Source of the DNA: a virus
DNA: 33,870 bases
IMG/VR virus record: IMGVR_UViG_3300032296_002371
Coordinates: 1-33,870 of that record
Reading direction: 5' to 3' (one strand)
Shown: positions 302-27,543 of the stretch, piece by piece
Layout of the letters: each line of letters starts with the position of its first letter
Position numbering within the stretch: the first letter of the stretch is position 1
Notes under the pieces: model-generated
Told to the model about the DNA's origin: nothing
The model's database searches: none
What the model saw: only the letters and a program-made list of their open reading frames with translations
Made by a program: the position numbers and the translations under genes

Positions 302-1906
302 TCACATCATTCCAGCCATGGGATCTAGTTGCGAACTCTCGTCCTTGTCCTTTTTCTGGAATACGATAGACTCTGTGGTGATTATTGTACCAGCGACAGA
401 CGCCGCGTTTTTTAGCGCAGTTATCACAACCTTTGCTGGGTCGATGATGCCTGCTTCGATTCCGTTCACCAACTTGTGATTCTTCGCGTCGTAGATTTGA
501 CCTTCGACTGGCGTATATAGCCACCAATCTTCTACTCCAGCGTTAGATAGGATCTTTTTGAAAGGAGCACTCATTGCGCTTTTTACTATGCTCCAAGCGA
601 TGGATTGTCCTCTGTTAGTTTGGGATAGTCTGTAAAGAAGGCTTCCTCCTCCCGGTACGATACCGTCTGACAACGCTGCTTTTGTTGCGTAAAGAGAGTC
701 TTCCAATCTATCTTTCTTCTCTTTGATCTCAACCTCAGAGTTTCCTCCAACGTTTATGATTGCTACTCCACCTATCATTTTGCCTAAGCGTTCTTGTAGC
801 TTTTCCCTTTCGAAGAACGATGTTGCTTTCTCGATCTGTTCTTTTATCTCGTTAGCTCTTGCTTCGATCTTCTCTATTTCTCCTTTACCGTCAACGATGG
901 TTGTTTCGTCCTTAGATACTGTTACAAGTCTTGATGTTCCGAGGTACACGCTTAGGTTAGCTGCGGTGATTTTATCAAGCTTGTGTCCCTTGTCTTTGGA
1001 TAGCAAGTGTCCTCCTGTCAACACCGCAATGTCTTCTAGGATTAGAGTCTTTCTGTCTCCAAAGTCTGGCGCTTTAACTGCGCATACTTGTACGATTCCA
1101 CGCATCTTGTTAACGATCATTGTAGCCAGTGCCTCGTCTCCAAAGTCCTCAGCTATCACTAGCAATGGTTTGTTCTCTGAGTTGGCTTTCGTCATAACTT
1201 GTAAGAGTTCCTGTGCGGTAGATATACGTCCATCGTACAACAGAATGTACGGATTCTCCAATACTGCCTGCATAGTCGTGTTGTTAGTCACGAAGTACGG
1301 ACTCTTGTAGCCTCTTTCGAACTGCATACCCTCAACCACCTCTAGCTCTGTTTCACCAGACTTTGATTCTTCGATTGTAACCACGCCTTCCCTACCAACT
1401 TTGTCTATAGCTGCAGCAATTAGATTTCCAACCTCTGTATCGTTGTTACCGGATATGGAAGCCACGTGCTTGATTTGCTCCTCGGAACTTATGTCTACTG
1501 AAAGACTCTTGATCTCTTTTACGATTTCTTCAACGATGTTATCTATCTCCTTCTTTACAGCTACTGCGTTAACTCCCTGACGAATTTCCTTCAATCCTGC
1601 CTTAACCATTTCTGTAGCTATGAGAGTAGACGTTGTTGTACCATCACCAGCTTCGTTTGCTGACTTGATCGATACTGCCTTCAAAAGCTGGGCTCCTATG
1701 TCTTCGATGTCGTCTTCTAGCTTGCTAAAGGCCCGGGCCACGGATACGCCGTCTTTACTAATTTTAACCTCTCCGTTTTGTTCTCGGATCAGTACTGTTC
1801 TACCGCCCGGTCCCAATGTGGAAGACACGGTCTCGTTTAGCTTCTCAATGCCAGCCAATAACTTTTCTTTTAACTCCTGTCCGAATAAACTTTTTGTTGT
1901 GCTCAT
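302..1906 (-). CDS. groEL: GroEL chaperonin (phage-encoded)
   Basis: A 534-residue group I chaperonin, slightly shorter than the usual 545-550. It should form the 14-mer barrel that folds proteins with GroES and ATP. ATP-site segments are visible: TLGPGGRTVLI near 30-40 (the usual Lys of GPKGR is Gly here), KDGVSVA at 51-57 with the conserved Asp52, and GDGTTT near 87. The apical segment around EDFGDEALATMIVNKMRG and the late motif RLEDSLYATKAA, which carries the catalytic Asp region, are present, as is GGG in the equatorial domain. The C terminus ends DPMAGMM, a shortened form of the GGM tail. The gene follows groES by 6 nt and ends the chaperone operon. The probable role is folding capsid or other phage proteins, either replacing or supplementing host GroEL. 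The family assignment is secure. Confidence 0.97.
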   Translation of the reverse strand: MSTTKSLFGQELKEKLLAGIEKLNETVSSTLGPGGRTVLIREQNGEVKISKDGVSVARAFSKLEDDIEDIGAQLLKAVSIKSANEAGDGTTTSTLIATEMVKAGLKEIRQGVNAVAVKKEIDNIVEEIVKEIKSLSVDISSEEQIKHVASISGNNDTEVGNLIAAAIDKVGREGVVTIEESKSGETELEVVEGMQFERGYKSPYFVTNNTTMQAVLENPYILLYDGRISTAQELLQVMTKANSENKPLLVIAEDFGDEALATMIVNKMRGIVQVCAVKAPDFGDRKTLILEDIAVLTGGHLLSKDKGHKLDKITAANLSVYLGTSRLVTVSKDETTIVDGKGEIEKIEARANEIKEQIEKATSFFEREKLQERLGKMIGGVAIINVGGNSEVEIKEKKDRLEDSLYATKAALSDGIVPGGGSLLYRLSQTNRGQSIAWSIVKSAMSAPFKKILSNAGVEDWWLYTPVEGQIYDAKNHKLVNGIEAGIIDPAKVVITALKNAASVAGTIITTESIVFQKKDKDESSQLDPMAGMM

Positions 1907-1912
1907 ATTTTT

Positions 1913-2206
1913 TTAGTTTTCTAAGATTGCTAATATTTCTGTTTCTTTAATTAAAATGTAGTCTTCACCGTCAACTGTTACTTTCATCGATCCCATCTTA
2001 GGAATCAACACCTTCTGTCCCGGTTGCAATTTCGTCTTGTAATAAGTACCCTGTTGCCAGTTGTAAGTGTCAGATGAAGCTACTACTTCTCCCATTTCCG
2101 GAAGGTCTTTGCCCAAATCTGGAATTATTATGGCTCCATAGGTTTGTTCTTCTGAATCCACCGTTTTCAGAACAGCGATTCCGTTAATCGGTTTTAATTT
2201 ACTCAT
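1913..2206 (-). CDS. groES: GroES co-chaperonin
   Basis: A 97-residue GroES, the lid of the GroEL barrel. I chose the ATG at 2206 (MSKLKPINGIAVLK), which gives the normal family length. An in-frame upstream ATG would add 18 basic residues unlike GroES and overlap the preceding gene. The mobile loop and first strands are recognisable (EEQTYGAIIIPD, then PEMGEVVA), followed by the beta-barrel segments GQKVLIPKMG and EDYILIKETEILAIL. It lies 6 nt upstream of groEL, so the two are almost certainly co-expressed. Unlike T4, which supplies only a GroES replacement (gp31) for host GroEL, this phage carries both partners. Confidence 0.95.
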   Translation of the reverse strand: MSKLKPINGIAVLKTVDSEEQTYGAIIIPDLGKDLPEMGEVVASSDTYNWQQGTYYKTKLQPGQKVLIPKMGSMKVTVDGEDYILIKETEILAILEN

Positions 2207-2220
2207 GTTTCTGTTTTTGT

Positions 2221-2412
2221 TTAATCGTTTATTATTTCGGCCTCCTCTATCAATTGGCAAAAGTACATGATGTTGTCCTTTCTGAAGACAGTATCAGTTC
2301 TTAACCAGTCTTTGACCATGTCAACGTTTTTTATGCGTTCTTCTGGCCAAGCTCTCTTGATCTGGTAGAGGGATCCGTTTACTGAAATGTAATTTTTACA
2401 AATAGATAACAT
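2221..2412 (-). CDS. Small hypothetical protein between hsp20 and groES
   Basis: A 63-residue protein (MLSICKNYISVNGSLYQIK to EEAEIIND) that I do not recognise. It has no signal peptide, membrane segment or metal motif, and is mixed charged and aromatic with an acidic C terminus. It fits the gap between hsp20 and groES in the same direction, with 14 nt to the groES start, which supports its being a real operon member. One arm of a 13-bp inverted repeat ends 6 nt before its start codon. Function unknown. Confidence 0.6.
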   Translation of the reverse strand: MLSICKNYISVNGSLYQIKRAWPEERIKNVDMVKDWLRTDTVFRKDNIMYFCQLIEEAEIIND

Positions 2413-2417
2413 AACTT

Positions 2418-2430
2418 TACTTGGTAGGCT
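2418..2430. repeat. 13-bp inverted repeat, left arm (flanks hsp20)
   Basis: TACTTGGTAGGCT on the plus strand is the exact reverse complement of positions 2913-2925. The two arms bracket the hsp20 gene. In the transcript the arms could pair, or they could be the ends of an inserted cassette. Confidence 0.7.
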
Positions 2431-2435
2431 TAACT

Positions 2436-2846
2436 TTAATTGATGGTGATTTCTTTTAAGATTTTGGTCTTTTCTGCGGGAACGTCTAATATAAGAAGTC
2501 CCTTTTCCATCTTAGCCTCTAACTTTGCTAGATTGTATTTGTCAGCAACTCTCCAAGCTAGGTCGAAGGATCGTCTTGCTATTCCACGTTGAATGTACTC
2601 ACGCGACTCTGTTTCACCAGGTCCATCGTGAATAACCCTAAGCGTATTGCCTTCTACTTGGATTTTTAGGTCTTTCTTTTCCAAACCTACAACGGCCAGT
2701 TCAAACCTTAGGCCTGTGTCAGTTTCGTAAATGTCTACGGGATAATTGATCTTTGTCTTGATGCTGTTGAAAGTGGAAGTGGTGTCAAAGAAATTCTTCC
2801 ACATGATGTCGAATGGGTCCATTGCCCAATGTTGTAATTGTGTCAT
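2436..2846 (-). CDS. Hsp20 / small heat-shock protein
   Basis: A 136-residue alpha-crystallin-type holdase, close to the IbpA family in length, which binds unfolding proteins without ATP. The core begins near residue 36 (YPVDIYETDTGLRFELAVVG), continues through KKDLKIQVEGNTLRV, and ends with the signature A-x-M-E-K-G-L-L-x-L-x-V-P near 110-122. A short C-terminal tail, KEITIN, contains the I-x-I motif that helps oligomerise the family. It is the first gene of the chaperone operon that continues to groES and groEL. Unusually for this window it has a perfect AGGAGG ribosome-binding site, and it is bracketed by a 13-bp inverted repeat. Both features could indicate separate acquisition. Confidence 0.93.
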   Translation of the reverse strand: MTQLQHWAMDPFDIMWKNFFDTTSTFNSIKTKINYPVDIYETDTGLRFELAVVGLEKKDLKIQVEGNTLRVIHDGPGETESREYIQRGIARRSFDLAWRVADKYNLAKLEAKMEKGLLILDVPAEKTKILKEITIN

Positions 2847-6426: not shown

Positions 6427-8361
6427 TTACTTTATTGGACATGCACCTCCAGCGCACTCTGCTAATTCCATATCATCTTCTTTGAACTCAACACTTTTGA
6501 TTGGCGTTGTTTTACTCGCCATGTCTTCATACTGCTCCTTGGTTATTGTCTCATAAGGAGCTTGATCGAACCCGTGTCCGTGATACAGTAGAAACGATAC
6601 AGTTTTTATTTCGTGTCTAAAGTGCTCTTTTAAATATTTTTTAATATCCTCTATGTCCTCTTTCTTATAGTAAATCGTACAGCTAACAGAGTTATCTGAC
6701 CACTCTTTCTGCATTCTTCTAATCATGTCCATCTGAGTCTTCCAATCGTAATCTGCAGCTACTGGCGTAGATTCTGGAAGTTTACACGGAAAAGAAACGA
6801 CCATAGTAGATCTATCTTCTGTACCATCAAACTTTATCTGAGGCTCTATGTGATACCCGTGAAGTCTACAAACGCTTATCAGTGGAGATTCAGATGATAT
6901 TCTAACTCTGCGTATATAGTAGGGTCCAGCTGGATTTGGATGCACCCCTGGGGTTACTCCGGCTAAAAGCGAAAGAGTTCCTGAGGGTTTCACAGTGGTT
7001 AGTTTTATACTTTCGGGGAATCCTTTCTCTCCTGAATACCACTTATCGTAACCTCTCAACCAAGTATAAGCGTCTTTAAGCCAACTACGCTGTTCTTCTG
7101 TTGCTTGGAGTATCCCTGTCATACCGATACCCATTCTCATGTTTTTGTTTACTATTCGCTCTGTGTCTTTAAGTGAACAGTGTAAAGCTAAAGAGTGCTT
7201 GTTCATACGATACGCATAGGTCAACACCTCTTTTAACTCTTCGTAGGATTCGATGTTTGGTAAGTAAACCTCAGCAAGACAGCACGTTTCTTTATCAGCC
7301 AATGACTGTTCAGCACAAGGGTTAAAACCCTCCACTTCTGGATCTGGATACTGAGTTTCTCCGGTTCTACCAACAATTTTTGCCAACTCTAGATTAATCA
7401 ATCCGTAAGGCTCACCCTGATTATAAGTGTCCCAAAACTCTTTAGGTATATCATCGATATCTTCTGGTGCTACTATGGAATTGTTGCTCATCGCTCTCCA
7501 ATTGGGTATAGTTCCCAAATCCCACCTTTTTGCTTTTAAATACTCCAAATCGTCAAAATCACCAATGGCTATTTGAGCTGATCTACGCACATTTCCCGCT
7601 ACTACCACATAACCAATGATATTCATTATGTCAAGACAATCTATAGGTCTTAACTTCTTATTTGCTCTTTGATTAAGAATTCTATGTATTTCGTTTATTC
7701 CCCAACATAAATCCTCTGGACCGGAAGCTGTTCCTCCGAATCCCTTGATTAGCGCTCCTTTTGATCTTATACAGATGGTCGAATAAGAAAACCCCTCTCC
7801 TCCATAGAAATGAGCCTTAAGCACCTTTCCCAACAGTTTCACCCAACCTTCTCTAGAATCAGGGACTATGAAATCTGCGTCTTTTGTATCCTTTCTCTCT
7901 ATTTTTATTTTGCCTTTTAATTTTGGCAATTGGTACACATTGTGCTTTTGTATATTGTATCCCACTCCACTACCTAGCATGAGCATCTCGAATGTCCAAA
8001 CGAAAGGCTTTATTGGATCGTTAACTACGGTAAAAGCACAATTTTGCAAAGAAGGCAATCCAAGCCTGTCTACAGTTTTGGTACCCAATTGCCACATGAA
8101 TCTACCTGCTGTGGAGAACTTCAATTTCATTCTCAATTCAGCGTATCGCTGCTTCTCTTCTTCGGTAAAACCCACTTTTAGTTGCTTGTCGGAAGCTTCT
8201 AGCTCTCTTTGAACAACTTGCCAAAACTCTTCTGTTTTTGAATTAGAATCGTCCTCTTTTAGCCGTCTTGCGTAAGTCCTTTTGAAAGTTATGTAACCTA
8301 TCTCTCCCCAAGGTACTTCTATGTCTTTAAAATCGATGTTTGATTTTTCAAAAATGTTCAT
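6427..8361 (-). CDS. nrdJ: Class II (B12-dependent) ribonucleoside-triphosphate reductase
   Basis: A 644-residue monomeric reductase that makes dNTPs using adenosylcobalamin instead of an NrdB subunit, resembling the Lactobacillus leichmannii RTPR type. Visible elements are NCAFTVV with Cys108 (first redox cysteine), the finger-loop motif NPCAEQSL at 347-354 (radical Cys349, Glu351), CC at 360-361 (second redox cysteine), VKPSGTLSLLAG, and the C-terminal shuttle motif CAGGACPIK (Cys636 and Cys641). The family is often about 740 residues, so this version is compact. No NrdB-like gene occurs in the window, consistent with class II. Activity would depend on cobalamin from the host or environment. 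A promoter-like AT stretch and a small palindrome precede it. Confidence 0.93.
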   Translation of the reverse strand: MNIFEKSNIDFKDIEVPWGEIGYITFKRTYARRLKEDDSNSKTEEFWQVVQRELEASDKQLKVGFTEEEKQRYAELRMKLKFSTAGRFMWQLGTKTVDRLGLPSLQNCAFTVVNDPIKPFVWTFEMLMLGSGVGYNIQKHNVYQLPKLKGKIKIERKDTKDADFIVPDSREGWVKLLGKVLKAHFYGGEGFSYSTICIRSKGALIKGFGGTASGPEDLCWGINEIHRILNQRANKKLRPIDCLDIMNIIGYVVVAGNVRRSAQIAIGDFDDLEYLKAKRWDLGTIPNWRAMSNNSIVAPEDIDDIPKEFWDTYNQGEPYGLINLELAKIVGRTGETQYPDPEVEGFNPCAEQSLADKETCCLAEVYLPNIESYEELKEVLTYAYRMNKHSLALHCSLKDTERIVNKNMRMGIGMTGILQATEEQRSWLKDAYTWLRGYDKWYSGEKGFPESIKLTTVKPSGTLSLLAGVTPGVHPNPAGPYYIRRVRISSESPLISVCRLHGYHIEPQIKFDGTEDRSTMVVSFPCKLPESTPVAADYDWKTQMDMIRRMQKEWSDNSVSCTIYYKKEDIEDIKKYLKEHFRHEIKTVSFLLYHGHGFDQAPYETITKEQYEDMASKTTPIKSVEFKEDDMELAECAGGACPIK

Positions 8362-8695: not shown

Positions 8696-9172
8696 TCACA
8701 GGCCGAGTTCAAAAAACTTATTTGACAAATATTTTTTCTCATCGTTATCTATTCTACTGAATCCAGAGGGGGCTGAACTCGTATCCACCTTAAGCTCTGA
8801 GTCGTCCATTTCAGACGCGTCTATGTCTATGTGTCCGTTTGCTGTGTTTATTTTGGCAGAGAAAGTCATTCCATCACTTCCAAACCTGTTTTTGATAACG
8901 TGAATCCTACCTGTACCCGCAAGCTTGTCTCCCCTTTTTCTTGATAGAGACATAGCAAAGTCGGCTATCATGATCTTATCGTAAGAACCAGCTATCTTGT
9001 CTGCTTCAATGATGTCACTGTGAGCACCAGAATTATGACTATATATGTCATTTGCAAAAAACATATGAGTATCTTCTACTGTAATGTCTATAGTATTAGT
9101 ATCTCCTATGAGTTCTATGCTCTCTATTTCGACCAAGTCGAACATTTCTGTTTCTAAGTTGTGTTTATTCAT
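8696..9172 (-). CDS. Split intein C-half fused to C-terminal part of replicative helicase
   Basis: A 158-residue protein in two parts. Residues 1-47 are an intein C-terminal fragment with block F TIDITVEDTHMFFAND and block G ending IYSHN, the splice-site His-Asn. Ser48 is the +1 nucleophile. Residues 48-158 (from SGAHSDIIEADKIAGSYDKI) are the C-terminal end of a gp41/DnaB-like helicase core (MIADFAMSLSRKRGDKLAGTG). Joined in trans to the N-half (10291-11601), it would restore SQVNR-SGAHSD and a helicase of about 458 residues, close to T4 gp41. Its ATG overlaps the endonuclease stop (ATGAATAA), so its translation is probably coupled to the nuclease gene. Splicing activity is inferred; all motif residues I looked for are present. 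Confidence 0.92.
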   Translation of the reverse strand: MNKHNLETEMFDLVEIESIELIGDTNTIDITVEDTHMFFANDIYSHNSGAHSDIIEADKIAGSYDKIMIADFAMSLSRKRGDKLAGTGRIHVIKNRFGSDGMTFSAKINTANGHIDIDASEMDDSELKVDTSSAPSGFSRIDNDEKKYLSNKFFELGL

Positions 9173-10250
9173 TTAATAAAAATTTTTTACATTTATTTAA
9201 AACCGAATCTTTGTCAGTTTTCCATTCGTTTTCCCAAATAACTATGACATTATACCCAACCGACTTTAAGAATTCATATCTGGAATTGTCTTTTTTCCAA
9301 GTATCTTCTGCTATTTTACCATTTATAAAATCGTCTTTTTTGTATATCTTAGGATTAGCATGCCAATAATCTCCGTTAAACTCTATAATATTATTCTTAT
9401 ATTTAAAATCTACTTTTATAATATTATTACTGTTGTAAAATAATTGTTCTTCGTTTAATTCAAAAAATTTAGTATCTTGTTCAGTTAAGTTTAATTCTTT
9501 GTATAGTTGCCAAAAAAGATCTTGAGACATTTTACTATAGTATTTATTATGCGAAGTCGTTTTGTTTATAAACTCTAAATGTTTTGTTTTGCCTAACGAT
9601 TCTCCATATCTATCAATAAAAAACTCTAAATCACGTTTATGATAATTTCTTAAAGACTGTTTAGCTAACTCTTCGTCACCATCATGGTATTTTATCCAAT
9701 AGTTTTTACACCGAGGAGATGTCTTTTTACGCAATTCTATGTATTTATCATACTCTTCACTCCCTTTATCGTGGCCGTATCTTTTTATAAAAGCTTCGAT
9801 AGAGGTTGTGTCTTTTATACTTCTACACATTTCTACGCCATCATCTCCGTAGTCATCTAGGTATCTTTGCTTAGATACCATATACGATTGACGTTCGTTT
9901 CTCTTTTTCCAACGTTTATAGCCATCCTTCACTCCGTATCTAATCTGGTATTCTTCTAGTGTTCTACCGTTTTTCCATTTTTTTTCTTTAAAATTCTCCT
10001 CCTGAGATTTAAGCTTTTTACTCAATCTTTCATTCCACTTCTTTTCTCCAAGTTCTTTACCATATCTTTCTATACACGATTCTAAAGAGTATGATATTTT
10101 CTTTTTCTTTAAAATATCTGCATACTCCTTTCCGTATTTTTTTTCATAATATTCACTAGTTCTACTACATCTTTTTTTATAGTCTTGCCACATTTCATTA
10201 GCTTTCTCTTCTCCGTATTTTTTAATCCATGCGGGTAATACTGCTGCCAT
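9165..10250 (-). CDS. Vsr-like homing endonuclease within the fractured helicase gene
   Basis: A 361-residue protein. The start is placed at ATG 10250 (MAAVLPAWIKKYGEEK) because the promoter-like motif at 10264-10276 would overlap a longer version from 10286. About eight imperfect repeats of roughly 25 residues, each with Y-G-x-x-x-G (WIKKYGEEK, CIERYGKELGEKKW, YQIRYGVKDGYKRW, FIKRYGHDKG, FFIDRYGESLGK), fill residues about 8-235 and probably bind DNA. The C-terminal domain contains VDFKYKNNIIEFNGDYWH, then SRYEFLKSVGYNVIVIWENEW, which resembles the Vsr/PD-(D/E)xK-like nuclease core. Free-standing nucleases of this type between split-intein halves are known from phage 'fractured genes'. The region is visibly more A/T-rich than the helicase parts. 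Confidence 0.85.
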   Translation of the reverse strand: MAAVLPAWIKKYGEEKANEMWQDYKKRCSRTSEYYEKKYGKEYADILKKKKISYSLESCIERYGKELGEKKWNERLSKKLKSQEENFKEKKWKNGRTLEEYQIRYGVKDGYKRWKKRNERQSYMVSKQRYLDDYGDDGVEMCRSIKDTTSIEAFIKRYGHDKGSEEYDKYIELRKKTSPRCKNYWIKYHDGDEELAKQSLRNYHKRDLEFFIDRYGESLGKTKHLEFINKTTSHNKYYSKMSQDLFWQLYKELNLTEQDTKFFELNEEQLFYNSNNIIKVDFKYKNNIIEFNGDYWHANPKIYKKDDFINGKIAEDTWKKDNSRYEFLKSVGYNVIVIWENEWKTDKDSVLNKCKKFLLNE

Positions 10251-10263
10251 ACTGTAATTTATA

Positions 10264-10276
10264 ATAAATATGTAAC
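10264..10276 (-). promoter_or_regulatory. Promoter-like motif between helicase N-half and endonuclease
   Basis: The coding strand reads GTTACATATTTATTATAAA, ending 13 nt before ATG 10250. The core GTTACATATTTATT is identical to copies ahead of the tail sheath and tape measure genes. It would give the endonuclease and the coupled helicase C-half their own transcript. Confidence 0.5.
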
Positions 10277-10290
10277 AGTGTCTCAAAAAT

Positions 10291-11601
10291 TTACTTTTTT
10301 ACAAAAAGCTTGTCTCCAACTTTTAATCCAGTAGCTATAGACTTTAATTGTTTATATTGGGTGGGTAAGATATGGTTAGCAGATACATTTATCTCTTTTC
10401 CATTCTTTAACTTTATTTTGTATGTAGGTTGTCTTTCTACTGGGAATACTCTGGTAACAGACCTAAAACCTTTATGAGTTAGTACCATATCACCAACCTT
10501 CAAATCACCTATTCTCTGTTTACCGCTCGGCGTATCAACTTGATCATCTACATTATGACATCGGTTAACTTGTGAAACGGTCCATATAGGTGTGCGAATC
10601 TGCCTTGCCAAACCCTTGATTGAAGTGTATACATCGTCGATTTGATCTTTTCTCTCTGAAGACTTGGACTTAGATCTCAATAAGTCTACGTAATCGATGA
10701 TGACTAGATCTGGTTTGTGCCCAAGGGTTACGCACTTCTGAATGTGAGTCTCAATGCTTGAAGGAGTGGTTTTTCCCATTGGATACTCTTTGATGATTAG
10801 CTTGCCTGGTAATGAATTAATGGTCTCCTCTATCGTCTTTCTGCTATCTTCCTTATGAATGTTTTGAAAGTCAATGCCTGTTAGTATGGAATCGTAACGC
10901 TTACCTACGTACTCTTGCGAAAGCTCCAAAGTGTAGTGACAAACAGTATATCCCATCTTTACGGCAGTGGCTCCAAGATTAATTAAGAACCACGACTTAC
11001 CTCCGCCAGGAGAACCCAATACCATGCCTAGGTCACCAGCGCCCAGTCCTCCCATCAATAGATCGTTGATGTGTGGCCAAATGGTTGGTACCGCGCCTCT
11101 CTCTTCCAATCTATATCTGCTTTCCAAGTCCTTTTCGTACTCGTGTCCCAAGTCCCTACTCTGTCCAGCTTTGAGAGCTTGATCGATCATTGATCTGATG
11201 TCATCGTACTGTCCCTTTGTCAACAGTTCTACTGAGTTCATCAAAGCCTTTTTCAACTGTTGGTTCTTACAGAAGTTACTGAACTCTGTCTCGACGTACT
11301 CTTGGTCTTCGTTGATTGCTTTTAGCGCCTCTTTAAGCTGCTCAACTATTGTTACCTTCAACACGTCGTTCTCTATCTTCTTCACCTCAACAGATAGGTA
11401 CTCTGGGGTTGGATTGGCGTGATACTTAGAATAGTACTTAAGTGTTTCTTCAACTATCCACTTGTGAGCTGGATTGTCGAACTCCTCTGGATTCAATAGA
11501 TCATAAACTCCGTGTAAGAACTCCTTGTGTTTTAGAAGCGACGATATCACCTTTATTTGAAAAGATACGCCGTACGCCTGTAAAGTGTTTAATGTACTCA
11601 T
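10291..11601 (-). CDS. Replicative DNA helicase N-terminal part fused to split intein N-half
   Basis: A 436-residue protein. Residues 1-347 are a gp41/DnaB-like hexameric helicase with an N-terminal helical domain, Walker A GSPGGGKS, Walker B LVIIDYVDLL and IRTPIWTVSQVNR at the break. Residues 348-436 (10294-10560) are an intein N-fragment with Cys348, block A CHNVDDQVDTPSG, block B INVSANHILPT with its His, and an end at VGDKLFVKK before a stop. The partner half is at 8696-9172. It resembles the gp41-type split inteins known from phage metagenomes in layout and in the P-T end of block B. The gene follows the flap exonuclease gene by 3 nt. Without splicing the ATPase would lack its last 111 residues, so trans-splicing is presumably essential. 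Confidence 0.94.
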   Translation of the reverse strand: MSTLNTLQAYGVSFQIKVISSLLKHKEFLHGVYDLLNPEEFDNPAHKWIVEETLKYYSKYHANPTPEYLSVEVKKIENDVLKVTIVEQLKEALKAINEDQEYVETEFSNFCKNQQLKKALMNSVELLTKGQYDDIRSMIDQALKAGQSRDLGHEYEKDLESRYRLEERGAVPTIWPHINDLLMGGLGAGDLGMVLGSPGGGKSWFLINLGATAVKMGYTVCHYTLELSQEYVGKRYDSILTGIDFQNIHKEDSRKTIEETINSLPGKLIIKEYPMGKTTPSSIETHIQKCVTLGHKPDLVIIDYVDLLRSKSKSSERKDQIDDVYTSIKGLARQIRTPIWTVSQVNRCHNVDDQVDTPSGKQRIGDLKVGDMVLTHKGFRSVTRVFPVERQPTYKIKLKNGKEINVSANHILPTQYKQLKSIATGLKVGDKLFVKK

Positions 11602-26898: not shown

Positions 26899-27543
26899 TT
26901 ATATGTATTGTATTTTTTGTTTTTTTATCCAATTATAAATAGAATTTCTACTTACTTTATAATAGTTTGAAGCTGATTTTAACGTTGGAAATTCTAATCC
27001 AGATTCTATGTGTTTTACCTTTCTTGCCATACTGTGTAACTCATCCTTCTTTCCTTTTTTTAAGTTGATCTCATCGCTATACTTCATCCATATCTTACGA
27101 TCTCTAATTTTATTTCTAGTTTCTTCAGAGTATTTTTTGCCTTTATTAGCTAGACTTTGAATCTCTTTTACTTTATCAGAATGAGTTTTTCCTAAGAATC
27201 CTTTGGGATTATTTTCTCCAGAGTTATTTTTTAAAAAAGCCAATCTTGCTTCTTCATACGATCTAGAGCTTGGTATATACCTAAGTATTTTTTCGTTCTT
27301 TTGATTACACATTCCCCAAAAAGATAGAACTATATTTTTATCGTTTGGATATATTTTGTATAAAATCCTATGAGCTAAAAAGTGTTCTTTTGCTGTTAAG
27401 AGTACTAAATTTTCTTTACTATCGTTACCTCCCAAACATTTAGGATTAATGTGATGTTTTTCATAATATACGCCATTACCTTTTCGTCTATTCATAGACT
27501 TTCTTGAGTTCATAAACCTATCATATAGTTTAGCGTAATCCAT
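26899..27543 (-). CDS. HNH homing endonuclease with NUMOD-type DNA-binding domains
   Basis: A 214-residue free-standing nuclease. The HNH core at about 26-62 reads YYEKHHINPKCLGGND, then NLVLLTAKEHFLAHRIL. Residues about 115-160 (GKTHSDKVKEIQSLANKGKK, then SEETRNKIRDRK) look like NUMOD3 repeats. Residues about 172-214 (HIESGLEFPTLKSASNYYKV, then SRNSIYNWIKK) look like a NUMOD1-type helix-turn-helix. It interrupts the tail module between tube and gp26-like genes, is more A/T-rich than its neighbours, and follows a terminator with a promoter-like motif just before its ATG. The first half of the motif is shared with the partial HNH gene at 1-172, so the two may be relatives. It probably spreads by cutting uninserted relatives. 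Confidence 0.9.
   Translation of the reverse strand: MDYAKLYDRFMNSRKSMNRRKGNGVYYEKHHINPKCLGGNDSKENLVLLTAKEHFLAHRILYKIYPNDKNIVLSFWGMCNQKNEKILRYIPSSRSYEEARLAFLKNNSGENNPKGFLGKTHSDKVKEIQSLANKGKKYSEETRNKIRDRKIWMKYSDEINLKKGKKDELHSMARKVKHIESGLEFPTLKSASNYYKVSRNSIYNWIKKQKIQYI

What the first reader, a model, noticed from the sequence alone, without database searches (positions are those of the whole stretch)
8696..11601. Replicative helicase fractured by a split intein with an endonuclease gene in the gap
The helicase breaks exactly at SQVNR; the N-half continues into an intein N-fragment (Cys1, block B His) and the C-half begins with an intein C-fragment ending His-Asn before Ser+1. A Vsr-like homing endonuclease gene fills the break. 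Fractured genes of this layout were described from phage metagenomes (Dassa and coworkers). The residues needed for trans-splicing are all visible, so this is a candidate new fast-splicing split intein, with fragments of 89 and 47 residues.
Basis: partly seen in the sequence, partly recalled or inferred. Interest (0 to 1): 0.85.

Follow-up and report, generated by a model that had tools for sequence, protein, structure and literature searches.

The report
Phage helicase split by mobile intein
A phage carries its DNA-copying helicase as two genes that should be stitched back together as protein by a split intein, with a DNA-cutting gene parked in the gap; near-identical relatives with and without the insert show that the whole cassette has jumped between phages recently.

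Summary
On the minus strand, N-half 10291-11601 is 347 helicase residues plus an 89-residue intein N-fragment; C-half 8696-9172 is a 47-residue intein C-fragment plus 111 helicase residues. A free-standing Vsr/EDxHD-type endonuclease gene (9165-10250) lies between. Ligated helicase: 458 residues. The splicing residues (Cys1, His63, His46-Asn47, Ser+1) are invariant across aligned carriers. It is a new member of a known kind: 'fractured genes' with gp41-type split inteins.

Added here: (1) a relative with a 99%-identical N-extein and an empty site; (2) carrier L002, whose 1,529-bp cassette differs at 0.5% of bases (2/120 fourfold sites) while the flanking helicase differs at 64/164 fourfold sites, so the cassette moved recently, with borders within about 20 bp; a second carrier trio shows the same; (3) the first five C-extein codons, including Ser+1, travel with it, whereas empty alleles mostly have Ala or Met there; (4) relatives show truncated, remnant and absent endonucleases with the intein under purifying selection; (5) two lineages have the helicase fractured twice; (6) cultured Shigella phage ESh36 has a fractured T4-type gene 41.

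Splicing and DNA cleavage remain untested.

The parts
10291..11601 (-). Helicase N-half gene (436 aa): N-extein + intein N-fragment
10561..11601 (-). N-extein, DnaB-type replicative helicase residues 1-347, ending ...WTVSQVNR
   Evidence: PF03796 E 1e-21; phrog_19 E 1e-65
10294..10560 (-). Intein N-fragment, 89 aa; Cys1 and block-B His63 invariant in the 14 sequences aligned
   Evidence: gp41-1 intein 6qaz E 1.2e-15 / 7e-25 with profile; alignment A2
10251..10290 (-). AT-rich spacer between the N-half stop codon and the endonuclease ATG; contains ATATTTATTATAAA, partly conserved in relatives
9165..10250 (-). Free-standing endonuclease gene, 361 aa (ATG start; a TTG-initiated reading would begin at 10286): N-terminal array of YGxxxG repeats, C-terminal Vsr/EDxHD nuclease domain
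9360..9410 (-). Nuclease motif D281...E290-FNG-D294-YW-H297
   Evidence: D281, E290, H297 invariant and D294 nearly invariant in 40 homologues
9165..9172 (-). 8-base overlap ATGAATAA of endonuclease stop and C-half start (possible translational coupling)
   Evidence: endonuclease and C-half also overlap in L084/L085
8696..9172 (-). Helicase C-half gene (158 aa): intein C-fragment + C-extein
9032..9172 (-). Intein C-fragment, 47 aa, ending HMFFANDIYSHN
   Evidence: TIGR01443 above cut-off; A3 profile to 6qaz E 1.6e-7
8699..9031 (-). C-extein, 111 helicase residues from Ser+1
   Evidence: phrog_19 positions 514-591; contiguous with the N-extein in empty alleles
9017..9031 (-). Co-converted first five C-extein codons SGAHS (MGSKD in empty near relatives L003/L004); identity with L002 extends 20 bp, 9012-9031
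10561..10572 (-). 12 bp of N-extein identical with carrier L002 before divergence begins (upper limit of the co-converted N flank)
10995..10996 (-). Second intein site (Walker A, GGGK^S, after residue 202): empty in the window, occupied in relatives L167, L169, L174, L180, L181

Best explanation
A mobile fractured-gene cassette. The helicase is made as two polypeptides that associate through complementary intein fragments. The class-1 pathway (Cys1 N-S shift, transfer to Ser+1, Asn47 cyclisation) would release both fragments and ligate ...SQVNR to SGAHSD..., giving an uninterrupted 458-aa helicase. The free-standing Vsr/EDxHD endonuclease would cut intein-less helicase alleles in co-infecting phages; repair from the carrier copies the whole IntN-endonuclease-IntC unit plus a few bases of both flanks, including the Ser+1 codon the recipient usually lacks. 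Shown here: anatomy, homology, conserved catalytic residues, empty and occupied alleles, recent horizontal transfer of the cassette, short co-conversion, purifying selection on the intein after endonuclease loss. Inferred: splicing, cleavage and the homing mechanism.
For: Intein homology and invariant C1, H63, H46-N47, S48. Nuclease domain: the two best PDB chains by rank are Vsr 1cw0 and I-Bth0305I 3r3p (Foldseek probability 1.00 each, TM 0.58 and 0.72 normalised to the target). Empty near relatives L003 (99% aa in the N-extein) and L004 (97%) with unbroken helicase. Window against L002: 7 of 1529 mismatches in the cassette against 114 of 1041 and 45 of 336 in the exteins; fourfold sites 2/120 against 64/164 (Fisher p 5e-16). 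Independent trio L010/L012/L165: extein pS 0.54-0.87, intein pS 0-0.012, endonuclease pS 0.006-0.025. +1 residue in 75 empty alleles: Ala 47, Met 25, Ser 2, Thr 1; Ser in every carrier of this site seen. The helicase tree rejects one clade of the carriers win, L002, L010, L012, L165, L167 (p-AU 7e-59). Intein dN/dS about 0.05-0.11 among carriers with a remnant or no endonuclease. No second DnaB_C match in a 175-kb carrier contig.
Against: No biochemical data. Structure-search E-values are weak (0.11 and 0.25; nothing at E <= 0.001), although the two best-ranked folds are the expected ones. Metagenome contigs could be chimeric at shared cassettes (L009 and L011 end inside the endonuclease), though window and L002 have consistent divergence on both flanks. 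For L085 the helicase tree alone does not reject grouping with the window's clade (p-AU 0.17), while its intein does not group with the other outside carriers (p-AU 0.004).
Confidence: 0.87

Rival explanations
1. Active split intein, but the cassette spreads by ordinary phage recombination or hitch-hiking; the endonuclease does not home it.
For: Phages recombine freely: the RNR gene next door is exchanged for a different one in L002/L003. Several carriers have lost the endonuclease.
Against: Transfer borders lie within about 12-29 bp of the cassette ends in two independent carrier groups, which break repair at the insertion site predicts and unfocused recombination does not; the window's endonuclease keeps its active-site residues and full-length copies show dN/dS well below 1.
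Confidence: 0.08
2. The helicase halves work as a non-covalent two-subunit enzyme (genes in pieces) and splicing is not needed.
For: Phage genes-in-pieces enzymes without inteins exist (a genes-in-pieces RNR that keeps its function is cited in PMC3322345).
Against: Both termini carry intact intein fragments with invariant catalytic residues and strong purifying selection, even where the endonuclease is gone; the break lies directly after the conserved SQxNR motif of the ATPase core.
Confidence: 0.03
3. Broken helicase: the insert inactivated the gene and the host or another helicase replaces it.
For: The record is a fragment, so a second helicase cannot be excluded.
Against: Both halves are open and under strong purifying selection (extein dN/dS 0.02-0.03 against L002); the only DnaB_C match in 40-175-kb carrier contigs is the fractured one.
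Confidence: 0.01
4. Assembly or sequencing artefact.
For: Metagenomic record.
Against: Same three-gene layout in many contigs from different samples, including identical 8.2-kb stretches from separate samples for relatives, and the same kind of layout in cultured-phage records.
Confidence: 0.01

Closest known systems
Fractured genes with split inteins and free-standing endonucleases (Dassa et al. 2009, NAR 37:2560, doi 10.1093/nar/gkp095; not held in the library, features recalled)
   Same: Conserved phage replication enzyme broken by a split intein with a Vsr-related endonuclease gene in the gap
   Different: Here empty and occupied alleles and recent transfer with co-conversion can be read directly; relatives show endonuclease decay and double fracture
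gp41-1 and gp41-8 split inteins
   Same: Same family: window IntN and IntC match the gp41-1 structure 6qaz; fragment lengths similar; the recalled gp41-8 junction SQLNR/S suggests the same insertion site, as in relatives L182-L187 (QLNR^C)
I-Bth0305I / EDxHD (Vsr-like) homing endonucleases
   Same: Nuclease fold and acidic/His motif; extended DNA-binding part
   Different: Free-standing gene between intein halves, with an N-terminal array of YGxxxG helical repeats; cleavage untested
Aeromonas phage Aes PolB and Pseudomonas phage MIJ3 PolB split inteins
   Same: N-half, endonuclease gene, C-half order; Aes records annotate a VSR endonuclease
   Different: DNA polymerase B, not helicase; MIJ3 has an HNH endonuclease (PMC6892783)

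Membership tests
Fractured gene (Dassa arrangement) | Conserved enzyme gene broken into two ORFs at one point | tested here: met
   Exteins contiguous in L003/L004 and about 70 other empty relatives and in cultured Flavobacterium phage immuto
Fractured gene (Dassa arrangement) | Intein fragments at the break on both halves | tested here: met
Fractured gene (Dassa arrangement) | Free-standing endonuclease gene between the halves | tested here: met
   in 85 related loci (redundant) none has the endonuclease fused to the C-fragment
Fractured gene (Dassa arrangement) | Protein trans-splicing of the halves | not testable with these tools
   needs expression
Class 1 split intein, gp41 type | Cys1, block-B His, penultimate His, terminal Asn, nucleophilic +1 | tested here: met
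Class 1 split intein, gp41 type | Homology of both fragments to a gp41 intein | tested here: met
   6qaz: E 7e-25 (IntN) and 1.6e-7 (IntC) with profiles
Class 1 split intein, gp41 type | Same insertion site as gp41-8 | tested here: inconclusive
   gp41-8 sequence not found in held papers; relatives L182-L187 with QLNR^C are only suggestive
Class 1 split intein, gp41 type | Very fast splicing | not testable with these tools
   kinetics needed
Vsr-like / EDxHD homing endonuclease | Vsr-type nuclease fold | tested here: met
   AlphaFold model, nuclease domain pLDDT 89-98 by blocks; best PDB matches Vsr and I-Bth0305I, probability 1.00, but E 0.11 and 0.25
Vsr-like / EDxHD homing endonuclease | Conserved acidic/His active-site residues | tested here: met
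   D281, E290, H297 invariant, D294 nearly so; residue-by-residue match to I-Bth0305I not made
Vsr-like / EDxHD homing endonuclease | Cleaves the empty site and promotes homing | tested here: inconclusive
   Footprint of homing; activity not testable

The most novel reading that the evidence does not exclude
IntN, endonuclease and IntC form one homing unit that invades essential phage helicases and brings its own +1 nucleophile by co-conversion. In related phages it has met a second such element at the Walker A site, so that one helicase is encoded in three pieces; the middle polypeptide bears an intein fragment at each end, and two orthogonal trans-splicing reactions are needed for every helicase molecule.
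Probability: 0.65. Interest if true: 0.65.

Novelty: new member of a known kind. Interest (0 to 1): 0.52.

Why it matters
Fractured genes were proposed as a route to split inteins, with the endonuclease as the presumed mover. The allele pairs found here (nearly identical helicases with and without the cassette, and nearly identical cassettes in diverged helicases) make that proposal directly testable with defined donor and target DNA. Relatives at the same site run from full to truncated to absent endonuclease while the intein stays intact, a picture of how a gene stays broken after its mover is lost. The new intein fragments and the natural three-piece helicase are also useful leads for protein ligation tools.

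Tried and rejected
Dassa 2009 and Carvajal-Vallejos 2012 are not held; gp41-8 letters were not found in held papers, so insertion-site identity with gp41-8 stays a lead. A special promoter in the IntN-endonuclease spacer was considered: ATATTTATTATAAA with up to 2 mismatches occurs 5 times in the window (about 1 expected; 1 of 100 shuffles reached 5), but the pattern was chosen after seeing the sequence and the region is AT-rich, so it is suggestive only. RNA folding of the spacer gave nothing clearly conserved. The AU test for L085's helicase position was not significant, so horizontal transfer to that lineage rests on identities (helicase 41%, intein 74%) and on the intein tree. L181 first looked doubly fractured but has a contiguous LAGLIDADG-type intein at the Walker A site. 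A genome-contig scan found no cellular relative. The IntN/IntC mosaic of L167 against L169 may be an assembly chimera and was not pursued.

Full report
Observation. The window is a 33,870-base virus record. Its minus strand carries, in order of transcription, single-strand-binding protein, UvsX-like recombinase, exonuclease, helicase, class II RNR, DNA polymerase, Hsp20, GroES and GroEL; the stretch from single-strand-binding protein to RNR has the order of cultured Flavobacterium phage immuto. The helicase lies in two ORFs, as described: N-half 10291-11601 (347 + 89 aa) and C-half 8696-9172 (47 + 111 aa), with a 361-aa ORF between. The N-extein ends at SQVNR and the C-extein begins SGAHSD. 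In about 70 relatives these two stretches are continuous in one helicase gene.

Intein. The N-fragment matches the gp41-1 intein structure at E 1.2e-15 alone and 7e-25 as a profile of carriers. The C-fragment scores above the curated NCBIfam cut-off for an intein C-terminus and matches gp41-1 at 1.6e-7 as a profile. Cys1 and His63 are invariant in 14 sequences, and His46-Asn47-Ser+1 in 12. The start MxxHxL...F, conserved in relatives, supports the 47-residue length of the C-fragment.

Endonuclease. An AlphaFold model built on 40 homologues has a confident C-terminal domain (blocks at pLDDT 89-98 from residue 241 to 360). Its best PDB matches are Vsr (1cw0) and the catalytic domain of homing endonuclease I-Bth0305I (3r3p), probability 1.00 each, though with E-values of 0.11 and 0.25. 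Asp281, Glu290 and His297 are invariant and Asp294 nearly so. The N-terminal two thirds are helical repeats with a YGxxxG motif, a likely DNA-reading array (inference). In 85 related viral loci (redundant) this family is never fused to the intein C-fragment, and in 63 a separate intein C-like ORF follows; host genes include DNA polymerase B at YGD^TDS, terminase at its Walker A motif, RNR and helicase (genes named by eye from motifs, the IntC threshold was loose, and the search is not a census).

Mobility. Contig L003 has a helicase 99% identical to the window's in the N-extein, with no insert; L004 97%. Contig L002 carries the same cassette: 7 differences in 1,529 bp, while the exteins differ at 114 of 1,041 and 45 of 336 positions. 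Fourfold sites differ at 2 of 120 in the cassette and 64 of 164 in the exteins (Fisher p 5e-16). Divergence begins 13 bp upstream and 21 bp downstream of the cassette. A second set, L010/L012/L165, has high to saturated extein synonymous divergence (pS 0.54-0.87) around a nearly identical cassette (pS 0-0.025). These are footprints of two separate recent spreads of the unit.

Co-conversion. Empty near relatives read SQVNR^MGSKDDIIEADK and the carrier SQVNR^SGAHSDIIEADK, so five codons after the site came with the cassette. Of 75 empty alleles 72 have Ala or Met at +1, which cannot serve as the splicing nucleophile (established intein chemistry), whereas all carriers seen have Ser. Replacement of a non-splicing +1 residue by co-conversion is known for the haloarchaeal MCM-a intein, Pro to Ser (PMC10643990), so the principle is not new.

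Life cycle at one site. Full endonuclease: window, L002, L010, L012, L084/L085. In-frame shortened: L165 (308 aa). Divergent at the active site, with GDYWH replaced by CEYWH: L170. Remnant: L172-L178. None: L166-L169 (48-nt gap) and L179 (15-nt gap). The intein fragments remain intact, with dN/dS about 0.05-0.11 among these lineages, so splicing appears to be under selection without the endonuclease.

Double fracture. In L166-L168 (one phage in three records), L169 (an 88% relative whose upstream part is off the contig) and the distant L180 the Walker A site GK^S/T is also occupied by a split intein with its own Vsr-like endonuclease. The helicase is then three polypeptides, the middle one carrying intein fragments at both ends. 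L174-L178 have a contiguous, endonuclease-free intein at that site, and L181 a contiguous LAGLIDADG-type one. I found no report of such a three-piece gene in the held library, which lacks the key 2009 paper, so this is not a claim of priority.

A cultured case. Shigella phage ESh36 (ON528746, marked UNVERIFIED) has T4-type gene 41 in two halves around a 332-aa ORF, with an intein N-fragment 42% identical to the window's, at another site (SDIAE^SAG; the C-fragment ends Lys-Asn). 599 phage records match the gene and only ESh36 holds the insert.

Verdict. The kind is known; the member is new; the comparative evidence for recent homing is the main addition. Splicing, its speed and cleavage are untested.

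Noticed in passing
L167:1486-4797 (also L166, L168, L169, L180): Helicase fractured twice by two different split inteins; the middle polypeptide has an intein fragment at each end; the Walker A break has its own Vsr-like endonuclease, the second break has none left (L167, L169).
   Followed up: partly
L210:2382-5362 (Shigella phage ESh36, ON528746.1): T4-type gene 41 helicase of a cultured phage fractured by a split intein at a further site, with an unannotated weakly Vsr-like ORF in the gap; the gene matches about 600 T4-like records without the insert.
   Followed up: partly
window 6427-8361: The class II RNR gene directly downstream of the helicase is 97% identical in L004 but replaced by a different RNR (about 29-33% identical) at the same place in L002 and L003: recent gene replacement.
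   Followed up: partly
L174:4992-6113: RNR gene next to the doubly intein-bearing helicase is itself broken by an intein N-fragment after VVAGNVRR.
   Followed up: no
L167 against L169: IntN nearly identical (pS 0.018) but IntC diverged (pS 0.50): recombination inside the element or an assembly chimera.
   Followed up: no
L090, L094-L099 and other PolB loci: Many DNA polymerase B genes split at YGD^TDS with Ser1/Thr+1 intein halves and the same endonuclease family; possible cysteine-less split inteins.
   Followed up: no
window 302-2846: Phage encodes GroEL, GroES and Hsp20 homologues side by side.
   Followed up: no
window 26899-27543: A second homing endonuclease-like gene (phrog_655) near tail genes.
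   Followed up: no
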